DNA from: a virus | Reading direction: 5' to 3' (one strand) | Virus record (IMG/VR): IMGVR_UViG_3300025828_000180 | Coordinates: 1-24,795 of that record | Length of the DNA stretch: 24,795 nucleotides | Part shown: piece after piece, positions 5,874 through 21,294 of the stretch | How the letters are laid out: each line of letters starts with the position of its first letter | Position numbering within the stretch: position 1 is the first letter of the stretch | Program-made: the position numbers and the translations under genes | The notes under the pieces: model-generated | What the model saw: only the letters and a program-made list of their open reading frames with translations | Told to the model about the DNA's origin: nothing | Database searches by the model: none

Positions 5874-8201
5874 TTAGTCCTCAATAATTCCCTCAAACTC
5901 AGGAGCACGTCTGGGCGCTAGTTCACCTGGGCGCCACCAGTAATCCCGATTGTACTCTGTATATTCCTTTCGCATAAGGCGTCGATACTTCTTTTCCGCC
6001 TCCGGATCTGCCATCATTTCCAGTTGGTCAAACAAACCCTGCTTAAGCAAATGCACCTGCCAGGTACTAGGCGTATATCTTTCTGCTATCTGAGAAGCCT
6101 CTTTAAGGATGTGCGTTTCTTCGCCTTGCACTAACTCCCTAAAATTACCAAGAGTAAACTTAGCCGTGGTATCAAGTAGCTCACCTGCTGGACCTGTAAG
6201 AGTTTCACTTATCCCCCCGCCAAATCGGTTGACATCAGAGAATACAAAGTCACCCATGATTCCTAGGCCGCCGCCCTGCTGAAGCGCTGCCGCCCAAAAC
6301 TCCGGTGTATTCATTGGTCTTGGGTCTTTGCCCTTAGCGATATCCTTAGCCTGGAGCGCAATAGCACCTAACGCCCATGTAGTTGCGAGCATGGCGCCAA
6401 AGTAGCCTGGCTTGAATCCAGAAGAGCCGAGCATACCAGCTCGATAAAAATGCGTAGTAGCAATCGTTAGCGGGAACGACTTAATCATAAACGCAGATCG
6501 CCATGCCTCGCCGGACACAGTTCCGCGCTGCAAGCCGCCAGTAGTAATGGCTCGCACTCTGGCATCCGGTGTGGGTACTGCGTAATCAACCTCAGACATA
6601 ATCATCTGGTGAAACTTCTTGCCGCCTGGTTGCGTCATATCCGCATATACGCCGCCATTATGCTTAAGCAGTGTTGTACGCCTAAACTGCGCCCAATCAG
6701 CTTCCGTAATGTCGTAAGTCTGCATAGCGCGAATTAGGTTTGGATCTAGCTCGTTAAACTTTTTGCCAAAGTTTCTGCCCAACAAGCCAGCAAACTCGAT
6801 GGTAAATGACTTTCTGCCGCCATCTGTCCAAGGCTTGAGTAGTGATGCGCGCATAACGCCTTCTGCTACTTTTGCAGTCATGCCAGTACCGTAGACATCG
6901 CCGTACCGATTGCTTGCGTGTGTCCTAGTAATCCAAGCCTCCGCGCCTAAACCAATCTGTGCAGCGATTCTTTGGCTTTCAATATCGCCTGGCGCCAGAC
7001 TACGCAGCTGCCCCATGAGAATCTTCATGGCCGGCAATCCGTTCATCTTTGCCGTTAGTGTCTGAAAGCCCACATCAGATATCGACGACAAGAATGCGCT
7101 GCCTAACGTAGATGCGGTGATAACATTGCGGAATCCTTGGAAGAAGTCAGCAGTGCTCGTAATCTCGCCTTGATTTGTTTTGCCCGATACGACGTTAAAC
7201 GTAGCCTCAACCATCTTCTTTTGGCTTGGCGTAAATAGCTTTTGTTTGTCGTAATACGCAAACATAGCCTTGTATGTATCGTTAGGGTTTGGCCCCATGC
7301 GCTCTAGTAGCGCAATATCGTTAGCGCTTGCTTCAAGGTAGTCAGTAAATATTGAGAACAGATCGCCACGCCCAAAGTCTTTTTGGTAATCAATGTATGA
7401 ATCTGCTGTCTTAAAATAGAGAACACGGCGCTCAGATCCACGCCTAGACAGCTTTCTGCCCAGCCTTGGCACTGCTAAATCCTCTAGCTTATTGAGGCCA
7501 TGTGTCGTAATTGACTCATATGAGTAGTTAAGTAAGTCATCAAGCTGTTTATCTGATAAAGGTTCGCCAGCATCATCAAGCATACGAGCACGATCTAACA
7601 CGCCCTCACGCTTCATGTAATTTACCCAAGCTTCTTTGCCAGCATTCTGGACCGCTCTTGCATCATGGTGCTGCGGCATCAGGAACCTATCGTTCTTAGA
7701 AATAGCCGCGCCGTTCCTATTCTTTAGCTGGCGAATAAGCTCTGTAGTCTCTAGCCAGTCTTTGGCAGCCGCATTGATTACCGCGTCGTCAGTAGTCTCG
7801 CCATAAATAGCACGAACAAACTTTTGCAAGTTTTCTTCGTCAGTCAGAAAGCCCAAGCCTTTTGCGCGGAAGCGCTCTAGCATCTTGGCGTTCTTGGATT
7901 GCAGCAGGTTATTATAGTACCTACCCAGAAACTCTACGTTTTTGTAGCCAGCAGCGCCCCGGTTGTCCTTGGTCAACATCGCCATCATGCCGTAAAACGG
8001 GCCGTCAGGATGTTTAGATACGTCTTTTACTGCATCAGATAGGCGCACAGCCTGGAATGCCGCCTCTCTTTTCTCTCTAGAGATGGTGGCTATGTATTCA
8101 TCGAGCACACGATCAGGCTCTACCGATTCGGTAAGTGCTTTCTTTACCTGGTCAGGCAGCTTTGCCGCTACCTTTGGCACACAGACATCAAAACTACTCA
8201 C
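5874..8201 (-). CDS. Large internal virion / DNA-ejection protein, about 775 aa
   Basis: Large mostly helical protein at the position of T7 gp16, just before the fibre gene. I chose the GTG at 8201 because GGAGGTG lies eight bases upstream and the start overlaps the previous stop as GTGAGTAG. An in-frame GTG at 8231 would add ten residues (785 aa) without a comparable ribosome-binding site. Residues about 365-380 and 600-617 (FGAMLATTWALGAIALQA) are hydrophobic enough to enter a membrane. A glycine-rich stretch at about 638-655 (FWAAALQQGGGLGIMGDFVF) resembles one I recall from podophage internal proteins. It has no lytic transglycosylase signature that I can see. The role in forming the ejection channel is inferred from gene order. 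Confidence 0.75.
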   Translation of the reverse strand: MSSFDVCVPKVAAKLPDQVKKALTESVEPDRVLDEYIATISREKREAAFQAVRLSDAVKDVSKHPDGPFYGMMAMLTKDNRGAAGYKNVEFLGRYYNNLLQSKNAKMLERFRAKGLGFLTDEENLQKFVRAIYGETTDDAVINAAAKDWLETTELIRQLKNRNGAAISKNDRFLMPQHHDARAVQNAGKEAWVNYMKREGVLDRARMLDDAGEPLSDKQLDDLLNYSYESITTHGLNKLEDLAVPRLGRKLSRRGSERRVLYFKTADSYIDYQKDFGRGDLFSIFTDYLEASANDIALLERMGPNPNDTYKAMFAYYDKQKLFTPSQKKMVEATFNVVSGKTNQGEITSTADFFQGFRNVITASTLGSAFLSSISDVGFQTLTAKMNGLPAMKILMGQLRSLAPGDIESQRIAAQIGLGAEAWITRTHASNRYGDVYGTGMTAKVAEGVMRASLLKPWTDGGRKSFTIEFAGLLGRNFGKKFNELDPNLIRAMQTYDITEADWAQFRRTTLLKHNGGVYADMTQPGGKKFHQMIMSEVDYAVPTPDARVRAITTGGLQRGTVSGEAWRSAFMIKSFPLTIATTHFYRAGMLGSSGFKPGYFGAMLATTWALGAIALQAKDIAKGKDPRPMNTPEFWAAALQQGGGLGIMGDFVFSDVNRFGGGISETLTGPAGELLDTTAKFTLGNFRELVQGEETHILKEASQIAERYTPSTWQVHLLKQGLFDQLEMMADPEAEKKYRRLMRKEYTEYNRDYWWRPGELAPRRAPEFEGIIED

Positions 8202-10194
8202 CGCGCACGCACCTCCGTAATGCTTCTGCACTTTCTAGCTGCTCATCGGCGCTCTTAATAATCGCCGGCGCGTCAAAGATAACATCATCGCCTATCTTGA
8301 CGACTTGCTCTTCTGGCGACAGTCGCTCGTATGCCGCTATAGCCTCATCATAACTAGACTCAATATCAATTTCTTCCATCAACTCCCGCTCTCTTGAACT
8401 AACAACGGGCGCTCTTGGTGCGTCTGGATACTCTTCGTAGTATTGCTCGAATGTCCTGCTAGGCTGATATGACGAATAGCGTTGCGCTTCTAGTTCTTCA
8501 GCGTATCGCATACCTTCCATCATGCGCCGCGCAGCACTTTCTTTATAAATGTCTTCTAGTGTTCGCGCTGTAATGGTAACTGGCTCTCGAAAGGTGATGT
8601 TTAGTCCATCATCTTCGATGAATACATTGCGCTGCTTAAGATCATCAACGATCTCGCGGGTTGCGTTATATCCAATGCGCAAATGCTTCTGCAGCTTGCT
8701 AGTCGTAAACGCTTTGCCCTGCTTCTTTGCAAACGTCACAGCCTTCTTTGAATTGCCGGTTAGGTCTTTGGTTGGGTCTGCAAACTTCGACTCAATCTCT
8801 AAAACTTTCCCTTCTAGCGCATCAATCCTAGCCTGTACATCTGGGTCGGCATACATCTTGGGGTTGAAGGTCATCTGATCCACAAGATCTACTGCATCGT
8901 TTGCGCCAAACTTATCAGGACCATCTGCTCGGTTTATGTAGCCAGGTAAGATATCTTGTTGATCGACAATAAACTCGGCTAGCTCATCAGGCGTCATGCC
9001 CTCATTGCCGGCGCGCCAAAAACCAGGCTGAAAACCCTTTTTGAAGTTTTCTGGATCAATGCCATCATCGGCAAAGGCTTGCTTATTAAGGCCGCCCCTC
9101 GATCTAATTAGCCCTGCTATCTTTGGCTTTTTAGCAAGCTCTTTAGACTCTGACTCCAGCTTTCTTATCATTGAGTAGTAAGCGTCTATTTCTGACCTGT
9201 ACTCGCCCTGCAAAAAACGTCGATACTCGTCGTCAATTAGTCTGTCAGGCGATGGTGGATTTGCCTCATCAAGCGCCTCTTGCAGCTCTTGAAACTCTCG
9301 CAATCCCCTATCTAGCTTTGCAAAATCTCTTTGCGGGCCAGTGCCTTTAGCGGCACCAGTCACATCCTCAAGCGCAGTAAGTGTATCGTCCTGCTCAGAT
9401 AAGAATGGCGCTGGCTCGTCAGGCGCGTCAGGCCTAGGCTCGGTAAATGAATCTGCAAGCCCCTGCCTAAATTGACGAATGTATCCAGCAATGCCGCCGG
9501 TGATACCGCCAACAAGTGCGCCACCTACGGCAGCAGAGCCAATGGCTAGTAATGCCTGGTTAGATGAGTAAGGAGAGTCGATGCTGTCTTTGTGCGCCAT
9601 GACAAATGGCTGAATGGCTAGCTCTGTGCCTGCTGTAAGCGCTGCTGTTCTGCCGGCAGTCCTTGTCGCGGCAGCTGCAACGCTCATGCCTCTTGCCATA
9701 TTAGGCAGAGTGCCAATACCCATAGTCGCAACACTAAAAGGCTCTAACGCAAGGAATGTAGCGGTCGTACCGACAAATTGTGCAGATCCAGGGCCAGCAG
9801 CTAATACGCTTTGTGCATACTCGCGCTTTTTGCGCAGCATCTCTTTGCGCTCATTCTCAAGCTCTAAGTCTGTGGATATGTAGTTACGATACGGGCCTTC
9901 TGGATCTTCATTGAGATGTCTGGCGAGACGGTTCATGTCAAAGTCGCCATCGCCGTTTGTGTAATCTGCCTCACTAACAATGCCATTTTCAATCAGCTCA
10001 AGCGCTCTGTTTCTGTTGCGCTCATACATCTGCCGATTAAGAAGGCCAGATACAGATAGATTTTCGTCTACATTAGTACCGACCGCAGCTGAAAATGCGT
10101 TATACCAGCTTGGCGCTTCTTTGTAGGTATTAGGCTCGAATAGCCTTTGCCCTTGCTCAAACGCTATCCTGTCTTGGCGAGAAACAAACGACAT
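8194..10194 (-). CDS. Internal virion / polyvalent-type protein with FtsK-gamma-like winged helix, 666 aa
   Basis: The ATG at 10194 follows the upstream stop as TGATATG. An upstream in-frame TTG would add 21 residues inside the previous gene and is unlikely. Residues about 214-239 form a glycine-zipper-like hydrophobic segment (GSAAVGGALVGGITGGIAGY), a candidate membrane-crossing helix. Residues about 360-440 (RGGLNKQAFADDG, then FWRAGNEGMTPDELAEFI) resemble domains found in large polyvalent phage proteins. Residues about 483-530 (AVTFAKKQGKAFTTSKLQK, then LRIGYN and IVDDLKQRNVF) resemble the gamma winged-helix domain of FtsK. The C-terminal part is acidic and charged. It probably travels in the capsid and is ejected with DNA. 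It could also be called an uncharacterised virion protein. Confidence 0.72.
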   Translation of the reverse strand: MSFVSRQDRIAFEQGQRLFEPNTYKEAPSWYNAFSAAVGTNVDENLSVSGLLNRQMYERNRNRALELIENGIVSEADYTNGDGDFDMNRLARHLNEDPEGPYRNYISTDLELENERKEMLRKKREYAQSVLAAGPGSAQFVGTTATFLALEPFSVATMGIGTLPNMARGMSVAAAATRTAGRTAALTAGTELAIQPFVMAHKDSIDSPYSSNQALLAIGSAAVGGALVGGITGGIAGYIRQFRQGLADSFTEPRPDAPDEPAPFLSEQDDTLTALEDVTGAAKGTGPQRDFAKLDRGLREFQELQEALDEANPPSPDRLIDDEYRRFLQGEYRSEIDAYYSMIRKLESESKELAKKPKIAGLIRSRGGLNKQAFADDGIDPENFKKGFQPGFWRAGNEGMTPDELAEFIVDQQDILPGYINRADGPDKFGANDAVDLVDQMTFNPKMYADPDVQARIDALEGKVLEIESKFADPTKDLTGNSKKAVTFAKKQGKAFTTSKLQKHLRIGYNATREIVDDLKQRNVFIEDDGLNITFREPVTITARTLEDIYKESAARRMMEGMRYAEELEAQRYSSYQPSRTFEQYYEEYPDAPRAPVVSSRERELMEEIDIESSYDEAIAAYERLSPEEQVVKIGDDVIFDAPAIIKSADEQLESAEALRRCVRGE

Positions 10195-10195
10195 A

Positions 10196-12535
10196 TCACT
10201 CTTGCTCTTCTTGCAGTCTAGCTCGTTGACGTTGCGCCTTTGTTTGTATGCCCTCAATAATCGGCGCTGTTACCGATTGCGCTAGTTTGCGCTTTCCAAG
10301 GTAAATGCTTTCAAGAACATCCCGATAGGAAGTAAGGTATTCAGTAAGAAACGACCCTTCGTATATTTCCGACGCAGTAAGTGTTCTTTTGCGGGCAGGT
10401 AAGCCCAGCTTTTCACGTTGCCTTTGCGCCTTCTGTGCCATGTTGGGAAATATCCCATACAAACTTTGCTGAGACGGCAAGGTGTTTCGTAGCTCGTCAG
10501 TCATCTGAAACCGTAATGGCTGCCCGTTAGCCAGGGTAAATGCTGGCTGTCCATTTTCTAGCTGCGGTTCATACGTATTGCTTGATATGCTTCTTATCCT
10601 AGATCGCTTCAATACCGCTAGTGCGCCATTATCTCCACCATACTGATCTGGCGTAAATCCAATTAAGCCGTCTGGCGCTAAATACTCTAAAGTATCAACG
10701 CTAAACCGCTCAATTGCATTGTTGAAGTCATCTTCCTCCATGCCTCTTGGAAGCTGATAAGTAAAGTTGTTGTACGTACCAACGCCGCCAGTAACCGCAT
10801 CAATTGACGCCTGAAACTCAGTAGTAACATCGTTGCCAATTTGTGTTTCGGGAGATGTTCTAACCTCTGCGTAATGAGCAAGCGCGGCCCTAAAAACGAT
10901 TGCATCATTTTCGCCAAAGCTGCCAGGCAATTCGTACAAGTCACCGACTTTGTTTTTGTAGATGGAGTACAGTTCGTTTTTGTTAGGTAAAGGCACACCC
11001 TGATCTATTTTGAACTGGCCCTGAAAAATTGCAGTAGCGACCGGAATGTCGTTTACGGCACCAGCCATGGCGAACTGGCTGGCTTTGCCCCTGCCTTGCC
11101 CAGCAAGCTGCTCCCATATTTGCGGGTACTTATCAGCGACCATTGAAAATGCTTGCGCGTCTTTTACCAACATCATTGGCGATGCTTCGCTTAGGTATGC
11201 AGCAAACTGAGAGGCCTCTTGATCTGTTAGTACATTTTGCTCAAACAGCATCTTGCCAGTGACCTCATCGACACCTACTGAAGCGGCAATAGCATTCATT
11301 TCTTGGATTCGTCGTGGGATAGATTCGCCAAGATTTGCAAAATCAAAAGGCTCTACGTTGACAATTTTGCGCTCCGATAAGAAGTCTAGGGCATCGCCTT
11401 TCTCGAATGCCGTAACCATCTTGTCTCGATACTCTTCGATGTTCTGTTGACTTTGCGCTAAGTAACCTAACTCTTGTGCTGTAAGCCCCGCTGTAGGCTC
11501 AGCTTTAACTTGATCGAGTAATTTATCAACGCCAGCCAGTGTGCCAGTATTGTTAAGTATCTGGACGTTCTTGTTACCTGCCAAGATGTCATCAAAGTCT
11601 CTGGCATCAGCTTCAGTGCCAAAGGCTTTTAGCTGAAGGTTTACATCATCTAGCTGTTCTTGAGGGACTTCCATGCCGGTAGCAATAACATCACGCAGCG
11701 ATCCAAGGTCATCCTTTAGCTTGGCTCTAGCAGCCTTTAATTCGTCATTACGTTTTGAAAGCACTCCGCTAGCAGCGCCTATAAGTTGACGTCGCTCTGT
11801 TGGATCAAACCGCTGATCGTCACGAATACGATTAACAAAGGCTTCTGCTTCTTCTGGCGTCTTAATTCTATTGACGACATTGATCTCACGCTCGTACTGA
11901 ACGTCTTTAACCATCTGAGCAGATCGCTTTGCGACATCCTCATCGGTCATCAATCCCTTATCTTCGAGATCAATATAAATCTTTTCGAGATCAGCTAATG
12001 CCCTGGTGCTAGTAGCAAAATCGCCATTGATCGCTTCGTCCCTGAGCGTCATCTCTCGTTTGGCAGATTCGCCAACAAGCGCATCTAATCGTCCTGCATT
12101 GGCATCTGCCCTGACGCCTACACGCTTGGAGATGGCATAACGATCAAGGCTAAGCGACAATTCCTGTTGCTGTATAGGATCTTCAAATCGCTGCGGTATC
12201 TTGTTCTGTATGCTTTGAACGGCGCTATCGAAAAAGTCTTCTCGCTTCTCTGGTGGTTGCAAAGCAGCCTCTTCAGCAGCAAGCGTTACCTCTTCCATGT
12301 ATTCGTTTGTAAATTGCTCGTTCTGAAGATCGCGCTGTATCTTTGCTTCTAGCTCTGCCGCCTCTCTCTGTCTGCGGTTTAACTCAAGCGCTGTGTCGCC
12401 TACCTGCTCAGCCAGTGCGCCCATCGCCCTAGCTTCTGCCGCACCAAAAGCTTCTGGTGTAGCGCGAACACGCATAGGTCTCGCACCTACATCAGCCGCT
12501 AATCCTGTTTGCGCTTGATATGTTGGTACTTTCAC
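10196..12535 (-). CDS. Internal virion protein, largely helical, 779 aa (gp15-like position)
   Basis: Starts at GTG 12535 with GGGAGA upstream, overlapping the end region of the previous gene by position but not by codons. The first 25 residues are flexible (MKVPTYQAQTGLAADVGARP). Residues about 30-130 and 245-330 are rich in Glu, Arg, Ala and Gln and look like long helices or coiled coils. It lacks a membrane segment and any recognisable catalytic motif. Size, helical nature and position between a gp14-like protein and a gp16-like pair match T7 gp15, a core or ejection protein that extends the tail across the periplasm. This is positional inference, since sequence resemblance to gp15 cannot be claimed by eye. 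Confidence 0.72.
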   Translation of the reverse strand: MKVPTYQAQTGLAADVGARPMRVRATPEAFGAAEARAMGALAEQVGDTALELNRRQREAAELEAKIQRDLQNEQFTNEYMEEVTLAAEEAALQPPEKREDFFDSAVQSIQNKIPQRFEDPIQQQELSLSLDRYAISKRVGVRADANAGRLDALVGESAKREMTLRDEAINGDFATSTRALADLEKIYIDLEDKGLMTDEDVAKRSAQMVKDVQYEREINVVNRIKTPEEAEAFVNRIRDDQRFDPTERRQLIGAASGVLSKRNDELKAARAKLKDDLGSLRDVIATGMEVPQEQLDDVNLQLKAFGTEADARDFDDILAGNKNVQILNNTGTLAGVDKLLDQVKAEPTAGLTAQELGYLAQSQQNIEEYRDKMVTAFEKGDALDFLSERKIVNVEPFDFANLGESIPRRIQEMNAIAASVGVDEVTGKMLFEQNVLTDQEASQFAAYLSEASPMMLVKDAQAFSMVADKYPQIWEQLAGQGRGKASQFAMAGAVNDIPVATAIFQGQFKIDQGVPLPNKNELYSIYKNKVGDLYELPGSFGENDAIVFRAALAHYAEVRTSPETQIGNDVTTEFQASIDAVTGGVGTYNNFTYQLPRGMEEDDFNNAIERFSVDTLEYLAPDGLIGFTPDQYGGDNGALAVLKRSRIRSISSNTYEPQLENGQPAFTLANGQPLRFQMTDELRNTLPSQQSLYGIFPNMAQKAQRQREKLGLPARKRTLTASEIYEGSFLTEYLTSYRDVLESIYLGKRKLAQSVTAPIIEGIQTKAQRQRARLQEEQE

Positions 12536-12536
12536 T

Positions 12537-13034
12537 TCAGTCTCCCATTCCCGCTATTTGGGCGCCGCCTCTTAGCAGCGATCCGGCAGCCTGGTAGTAA
12601 CTCGCTTTTTGTGCTGATCGGCCCATCATGCGATCAAGGCGACCTTGCAGTCTTTGCTCGGTTGCAGACTCTAGCGCCTGTTGCTCGCCAATAGATGCGT
12701 TATAGCGACGTAGCGCAATCTCGGTATCGGCTTCTCTAGCGTTGTCTAAAAGAACTTGTAATGGCGTACCGCCGGTAGCCACGAATCCGTTATACCGAAA
12801 CGCCTGGGCTGCCGTTGCTTGTAGGTCGGCAAAGTTATCTCGAAAGCGATTGATGTCAAACTCAGATGAGCGCTTAATCTGCTCCGCCTGTTGCTCTGCT
12901 ACCTTGGCATTACGCTCTGCCATGTTTGCATTGAACTGACCTGCCGCCCTAGCTGCAGCGCCTTGCTGCACAGCAGCGCTGGCACTCAAAAGCGAGGTGC
13001 CTGCTACAAGTGTTGCTGTTATTGGATCTGCCAT
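12537..13034 (-). CDS. Small internal virion protein, 165 aa (gp14-like)
   Basis: An Ala- and Gln-rich helical protein. It begins with a short hydrophobic stretch (ITATLVAGTSLLSASAAV, about residues 5-22), followed by an amphipathic helix (ARAAGQFNANMAERNAKVAE). A glycine turn (YNGFVATGGTPLQVLLDN) precedes a second helical region. This architecture, its size and its place directly after the tail nozzle and before the large internal proteins match the T7 gp14 class of ejection proteins, which form the outer-membrane pore. AGG lies seven bases upstream of ATG 13034. Its stop is one base from the next GTG start, so translation is coupled. Confidence 0.78.
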   Translation of the reverse strand: MADPITATLVAGTSLLSASAAVQQGAAARAAGQFNANMAERNAKVAEQQAEQIKRSSEFDINRFRDNFADLQATAAQAFRYNGFVATGGTPLQVLLDNAREADTEIALRRYNASIGEQQALESATEQRLQGRLDRMMGRSAQKASYYQAAGSLLRGGAQIAGMGD

Positions 13035-21278: not shown

Positions 21279-21294
21279 TGTTCTACGTGGAACA
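21279..21294. promoter_or_regulatory. parS-like 16-bp palindrome upstream of portal gene
   Basis: Plus strand reads TGTTCTACGTGGAACA and minus strand reads TGTTCCACGTAGAACA. This differs at a single position from the gammaproteobacterial chromosomal parS site TGTTCCACGTGGAACA, which ParB binds. It fills most of the 30-base gap between the 115-aa gene and the portal gene. No T-run follows, so it is not an intrinsic terminator. It could instead be a simple hairpin or an operator for a phage protein. The match is seen directly and binding is inference. Confidence 0.5.

What the first reader, a model, noticed from the sequence alone, without database searches (positions are those of the whole stretch)
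8605..8748. FtsK gamma-like winged helix inside an ejection protein
Residues about 483-530 of the 666-aa protein (AVTFAKKQGKAFTTSKLQK, then LRIGYN and IVDDLKQRNVF) read very much like the FtsK gamma domain, where a LQR-x-KIGYNRA-like helix binds the KOPS sequence. An ejected protein with a sequence-reading DNA domain could guide genome entry, mark the genome end, or interact with host chromosome-segregation machinery. It also pairs suggestively with the parS-like site in the same genome.
Basis: partly seen in the sequence, partly recalled or inferred. Interest (0 to 1): 0.65.

Follow-up and report, generated by a model that had tools for sequence, protein, structure and literature searches.

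The report
FtsK-like DNA-binding cassette in ejection protein
A marine podovirus protein, probably injected into the host with the DNA, carries a small optional DNA-binding module related to the one with which bacterial FtsK reads the chromosome, but with the known sequence-reading residues changed, so it probably grips or places DNA rather than reading FtsK's own signal.

Summary
Residues ~482-530 of the 666-aa protein (8605-8751, - strand) match Pfam FtsK_gamma: 31.4 bits in the DNA search (cut-off 30.6), 30.4 in hmmscan. A profile from only this protein's relatives matches phage/bacterial gamma domains (98.6%), and AlphaFold gives helix-helix-helix-wing (pLDDT 81, alignment included gamma domains). 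Gene order and a C-terminal cysteine motif make the protein the probable epsilon15/phiV10 gp16-type ejection protein.

Across 39 orthologs the domain is an optional cassette: after the middle module in the window, L005, L049 and L055; before it in L010/L011; cleanly missing in close relative L052; not found in about 30 others. Four of the copies, tested by tree, form one clade (99/99) apart from FtsK and other phage gamma domains.

KOPS reading is not supported: of N1296/R1300/E1303/E1306 the window has N, E, D, K; five related records hold no KOPS; the parS-like site is single, without informative conservation.

Best reading: a gamma-derived DNA-contact module of an ejected protein, with altered or no sequence preference. 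Gamma domains in phage polyvalent proteins and a small terminase are known; this host protein, mobility and residue pattern were not found described.

The parts
8194..10194 (-). 666-aa probable gp16-type ejection protein (ATG at 10194)
   Evidence: PHROG 342 'internal virion protein with endolysin domain' E 1.5e-4; synteny with phiV10
8605..8751 (-). FtsK-gamma-like winged-helix domain, residues 482-530
   Evidence: PF09397 match residues 484-524; hhalign 98.6%; AlphaFold model
8719..8757 (-). helix 1 of the domain (residues 480-492)
8680..8703 (-). helix 2 (residues 498-505)
8632..8670 (-). helix 3, recognition helix (residues 509-521); positions equal to E. coli N1296/R1300/E1303/E1306 read N/E/D/K
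   Evidence: residue numbering
8590..8622 (-). beta hairpin (wing), residues 525-535
8767..9204 (-). middle module (residues 331-476, GGLNK...FWRAG), partly shared with a 2514-aa protein of Vibrio phage 1.185.O; the gamma cassette lies after it here, before it in L010/L011
   Evidence: positions
9460..10194 (-). N-terminal module (residues 1-245) with glycine/alanine-rich hydrophobic stretches; the part shared by all orthologs
8197..8223 (-). C-terminal motif ALRRCVRGE; cysteine kept in 36 of 36 orthologs with a complete C-terminus; similar end in phiV10 p19
10196..12535 (-). gp15-type ejection protein (PHROG 992)
12537..13034 (-). gp14-type internal virion protein (PHROG 418)
5874..8210 (-). 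gp17-type virion protein (PHROG 684), overlapping the end of the ejection protein gene

Best explanation
The segment is a true FtsK-gamma-derived winged helix, carried as an optional cassette in a linker of a gp16-type ejection protein of an epsilon15/HTVC010P-related podovirus (homology and cassette behaviour shown by sequence; ejection role probable from synteny). It most likely works as a DNA-contact module: the protein leaves the capsid before the genome, its hydrophobic N-terminal part helps to form the channel, and the part holding the winged helix reaches the cytoplasm, where it grips the entering phage DNA or nearby host DNA (inferred, by analogy with T7 gp16-C). Because the KOPS-specific residues are changed, it should bind with a different or weak sequence preference, not read KOPS (inferred from residues).
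For: Homology and fold. Protein identity: order gp14-gp15-gp16-gp17 as in phiV10, C-terminal Cys motif also in phiV10 p19. Cassette behaviour: presence/absence and two positions; the domain is found only in this gene of the records examined. Selection: dN/dS about 0.04 over the domain between window and L005, and it is the best kept segment between window and L011 (57% against 43-50%). DNA-contact character: in the window and L005 the segment is about the most basic stretch (+8, +7) of an acidic protein (-34, -37). [quoted passage not shown]). KOPS residues.
Against: No binding data. The charge argument is weak in L010/L011 (+1) and L049/L055 (+4). About 30 orthologs, including close relative L052, do without the domain, so it is not essential for ejection. 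hhalign between this family and phiV10 p19 is not significant, so the ejection role rests on synteny, a weak PHROG match and a short motif. dN/dS uses saturated synonymous sites.
Confidence: 0.55

Rival explanations
1. The domain reads KOPS (or a close host polar motif) and so steers genome entry or links to FtsK-like chromosome handling.
For: Same fold and family; N1296 equivalent kept and E1303 conservatively D or E.
Against: R1300 becomes E or Q, E1306 becomes K (E in L049/L055), R1297-A1298-A1299 becomes [AP]-T-[RK]; no KOPS in five related records. R1300A or E1303A alone already impairs KOPS recognition in E. coli FtsK (PMC2680272).
Confidence: 0.06
2. The domain contacts the host recombinase XerD, using the face that FtsK uses, for example to perturb chromosome dimer resolution early in infection.
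For: FtsK contacts to XerD are Q1288, R1289, R1292, I1293, G1294, N1296 (PMC5052618 Table 1); the window keeps Q, K, R, I, G, N. KOPS-blind FtsK still supports XerCD recombination.
Against: R1289, the most critical FtsK residue, is K in all six copies; L049/L055 also change R1292 to K and I1293 to A. The same residues also contact DNA. No dif-like site beyond chance in the window.
Confidence: 0.08
3. It is a host-directed effector domain in a polyvalent-type virion protein: after injection it binds host chromosomal DNA or regulates host genes.
For: FtsK wHTH domains are listed among rare DNA-binding domains of polyvalent proteins (PMC5512222); the middle module recurs in a 2514-aa Vibrio phage protein that carries an LPD22 domain.
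Against: No LPD or effector domain found in this protein by Pfam; no known target.
Confidence: 0.2
4. A structural remnant: the fold is kept as a spacer but no longer touches DNA.
For: Key KOPS residues are lost, the cassette is dispensable in relatives, and its charge is near neutral in L010/L011.
Against: The QKHLxxGYNxT core is kept across three lineages on a long separate branch; low dN/dS.
Confidence: 0.11

Closest known systems
FtsK/SpoIIIE gamma domain (PF09397; PDB 2j5p, 2ve8/2ve9, 5dcf)
   Same: Sequence family, winged-helix order, the QxxLxxGYN loop
   Different: Not at the end of a DNA translocase; KOPS residues R1300 and (mostly) E1306 changed; one extra residue before helix 2; separate long-branch clade
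FtsK wHTH in phage/plasmid polyvalent proteins (Iyer et al. 2017, PMC5512222)
   Same: Gamma-type winged helix in a protein predicted to be delivered with the DNA
   Different: Described as rare, in multidomain effector proteins; here in a gp16-type podovirus ejection protein with no effector domain found
Small terminase with N-terminal FtsK_gamma, phages Sam46/Sam112 (PMC8190038)
   Same: Phage virion-assembly gene that took up a gamma domain
   Different: There the DNA-binding sites are reported as highly conserved with bacteria; packaging, not ejection
RdgC-gamma, GapR-gamma and PHROG 6576 proteins in virus contigs
   Same: Gamma domain fused to DNA-handling or unknown proteins of phages
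   Different: Domain usually at the C-terminus (N-terminal in the GapR fusion), NRAA-like core of helix 3 kept; not virion ejection proteins
T7 gp16 / epsilon15 gp16 ejection proteins
   Same: Gene order, hydrophobic modules, expected cytoplasmic DNA contact
   Different: No gamma domain found in phiV10, HTVC010P, Lederberg, SI2 or ZCVPP1; T7 gp16-C DNA binding is reported as sequence-independent

Membership tests
FtsK_gamma domain (PF09397) | Match to the family profile | tested here: met
   31.4 bits over the 30.6 cut-off in the genome search, 30.4 bits, just under, in hmmscan; hhalign 98.6%. L010/L011 and L049 score below the cut-off
FtsK_gamma domain (PF09397) | Winged-helix fold | tested here: met
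   Model pLDDT 81, H-H-H-beta-beta; winged-helix matches incl. 2j5p. The alignment contained gamma domains, so the test is not fully independent
KOPS-reading gamma domain | N1296, R1300, E1303, E1306 or equivalents | tested here: not met
   Window N, E, D, K; R1300 is E or Q in all six copies; residues from PMC2533119 and PMC2680272
KOPS-reading gamma domain | KOPS motifs in the DNA it would act on | tested here: inconclusive
   0 GGGNAGGG in five related phage records; 1.3 expected in the window, so absence alone is weak; host genome unknown
XerD-activating gamma domain | Contacts Q1288, R1289, R1292, I1293, G1294, N1296 | tested here: inconclusive
   Window keeps five of six with R1289K; L049/L055 keep three
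FtsK translocase | ATPase motor domain in the same protein | tested here: not met
   Pfam finds no motor domain in this protein
gp16-type podovirus ejection protein | Gene order gp14-gp15-gp16-gp17 | tested here: met
   PHROG 418, PHROG 992, this gene, PHROG 684 as in phiV10
gp16-type podovirus ejection protein | Sequence similarity to a known gp16 | tested here: inconclusive
   PHROG 342 E 1.5e-4; hhalign to phiV10 p19 not significant; shared C-terminal Cys motif; ZCVPP1 ortholog 31% over 122 aa to L011
gp16-type podovirus ejection protein | Present in the virion and ejected | not testable with these tools
   Needs virion proteomics and an infection assay
Polyvalent protein | Several disparate effector domains in one polypeptide | tested here: not met
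   Only FtsK_gamma found by Pfam; middle module shared with an LPD22-bearing phage protein

The most novel reading that the evidence does not exclude
An injected gamma-type domain with its own sequence code: it reads a short motif of its phage or host genome, or docks on host XerD, to direct genome entry or host chromosome handling in the first minutes of infection.
Probability: 0.12. Interest if true: 0.75.

Novelty: new variant of a known kind. Interest (0 to 1): 0.42.

Why it matters
How gp16-type ejection proteins hold DNA inside the host is poorly understood. A family in which a recognisable DNA-binding module is present, absent or moved between close relatives is a natural experiment: swap or remove the cassette and measure DNA entry. 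It also adds a case where a phage took a chromosome-reading domain, changed the residues that read the known signal and kept the fold.

Tried and rejected
Chance match: rejected. KOPS, dif and parS pairing: KOPS absent, dif-like matches at chance level, parS-like site a single site with no informative conservation. Over-represented 7-mers as a candidate target: nothing stands out. Full-length AlphaFold model: too poor to use. Foldseek in the viral library: only generic winged helices. Genome collection with the family's domain: only three Anaerolineales FtsK-like proteins. Plasmids: no match. A literature search for FtsK_gamma in ejection or internal virion proteins found none in the held library, which lacks most subscription papers.

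Full report
What was checked. The window is a 24.8-kb fragment of a virus record, the structural half of a podovirus on the - strand: terminase small and large subunits, portal, protease, major capsid protein, tail tubular A and B, internal virion proteins, tail fibre. Its portal is closest, about 60-64%, to Pelagibacter phages of the HTVC010P kind, and further off to the BPP-1 kind.

The domain. Pfam FtsK_gamma matches residues 484-524 at 30.4 bits by hmmscan (cut-off 30.6) and 31.4 bits in the DNA search. A profile of only the family's own copies matches gamma domains of phages and bacteria with 98.6% and finds E. coli FtsK gamma first among PDB sequences. A model of the segment built with 15 relatives has three helices and a two-stranded wing at pLDDT 81, and Foldseek returns winged helices, 2j5p among them. 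That alignment contains gamma domains, so the model is less independent than the profile test. The full-length model was poor.

The protein. Downstream lies PHROG 684, upstream PHROG 992 and PHROG 418, the order of phiV10 gp14, gp15, gp16, gp17 (epsilon15 names). PHROG 342 (internal virion protein with endolysin domain) matches at E 1.5e-4. An ortholog lies in the same gene block in Vibrio phage ZCVPP1. All 36 orthologs with a complete C-terminus keep a cysteine within the last eight residues, and phiV10 p19 ends in a similar motif. Direct profile comparison with phiV10 p19 is not significant. The ejection role is therefore probable, not proven.

A cassette that comes, goes and moves. Scans of virus contigs and the phage collection gave 39 orthologs for analysis, counting the window but not its identical copies L002-L004; some are near-copies of each other and three are cut short. 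The domain is present in the window, L005, L010, L011, L049 and L055 and not found in about 30 others; it is in no other gene of the records examined. In the window, L005, L049 and L055 it follows the middle module (GGLNK...FWRAG); in L010/L011 it precedes it. L052 has the same architecture without the cassette, with the flanking segments joined. On the tree of the N-terminal module the carriers, L052 and L056 (cut short, so undecided) form one clade (97/94); one gain, one loss and one move is the simplest account. The domains of the window, L005, L010 and L011 form one clade (99/99) on a long branch away from FtsK and other phage gamma domains (L049/L055 were found later and are not in that tree), which argues for relocation within the protein rather than separate captures.

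Constraint. Between window and L005 the domain's dN/dS is about 0.04, with synonymous sites saturated. It is the best kept segment between window and L011: 57% against 43-50%. The two genomes are mostly 90-100% identical, but about 73% in 8250-11750, the two large ejection genes, which looks like replacement of that block by recombination.

Does it read KOPS? In E. coli FtsK, N1296, R1300, E1303 and E1306 contribute to KOPS recognition (PMC2533119, PMC2680272). The window has N, E, D, K; other copies have E or Q at 1300 and K or E at 1306. Other phage gamma domains mostly keep NRAAR, though some RdgC fusions have H or Q at 1300, so that position alone is not decisive. There is no KOPS in the window or four relatives. 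The XerD contact set (PMC5052618 Table 1) is kept five of six in the window, with R1289K, but three of six in L049/L055.

Mechanism. T7 gp16-C binds DNA without sequence preference in the host cytoplasm and is proposed to clamp the entering genome (PMC8954989). The simplest account is that this cassette adds a DNA grip to a gp16-type protein. In the window and L005 it is about the most basic stretch of an acidic protein, but this is weak in L010/L011 and L049/L055. Binding, location after ejection and target are inferred.

Known precedents. FtsK wHTH domains are listed among rare domains of polyvalent proteins (PMC5512222), and a small terminase with an N-terminal FtsK_gamma is described (PMC8190038). 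Contigs here also show RdgC, GapR and PHROG 6576 fusions. I found no description of the domain in a gp16-type ejection protein (the library lacks most subscription papers).

Noticed in passing
window 8197-8223; L010, L011, L045, L046, L047, L049-L082: gp16-type proteins end in a motif with a conserved cysteine (LRRCVRGE, RVCALG, RACFIG, VACFLRG), and the next gene's protein starts with a similar [DE]xC or DC stretch; 36 of 36 orthologs with a complete C-terminus keep the cysteine. Function unknown, perhaps docking or processing between the two proteins.
   Followed up: partly
window 8250-11750 against L037: The two large ejection genes are about 73% identical at DNA level in genomes otherwise mostly 90-100% identical, suggesting block replacement by recombination.
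   Followed up: partly
window 21279-21294: parS-like near-palindrome TGTTCTACGTGGAACA just upstream of the portal start, one mismatch from TGTTYCACGTGRAACA. Flanks identical in the only relative sharing it.
   Followed up: partly
L015-L017, L019-L021, L024: Phage RdgC-like proteins with a C-terminal FtsK gamma domain (RdgC confirmed by Pfam for L015; the others read by eye).
   Followed up: no
L025 7128-7865: GapR-type DNA-binding domain fused to an FtsK gamma domain in a virus contig.
   Followed up: no
L006 7882-15426 (Vibrio phage 1.185.O): 2514-aa protein with LPD22, an acetyltransferase-like stretch and a match to a PHROG named ParB C-terminal domain; shares the middle module of the window protein.
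   Followed up: partly
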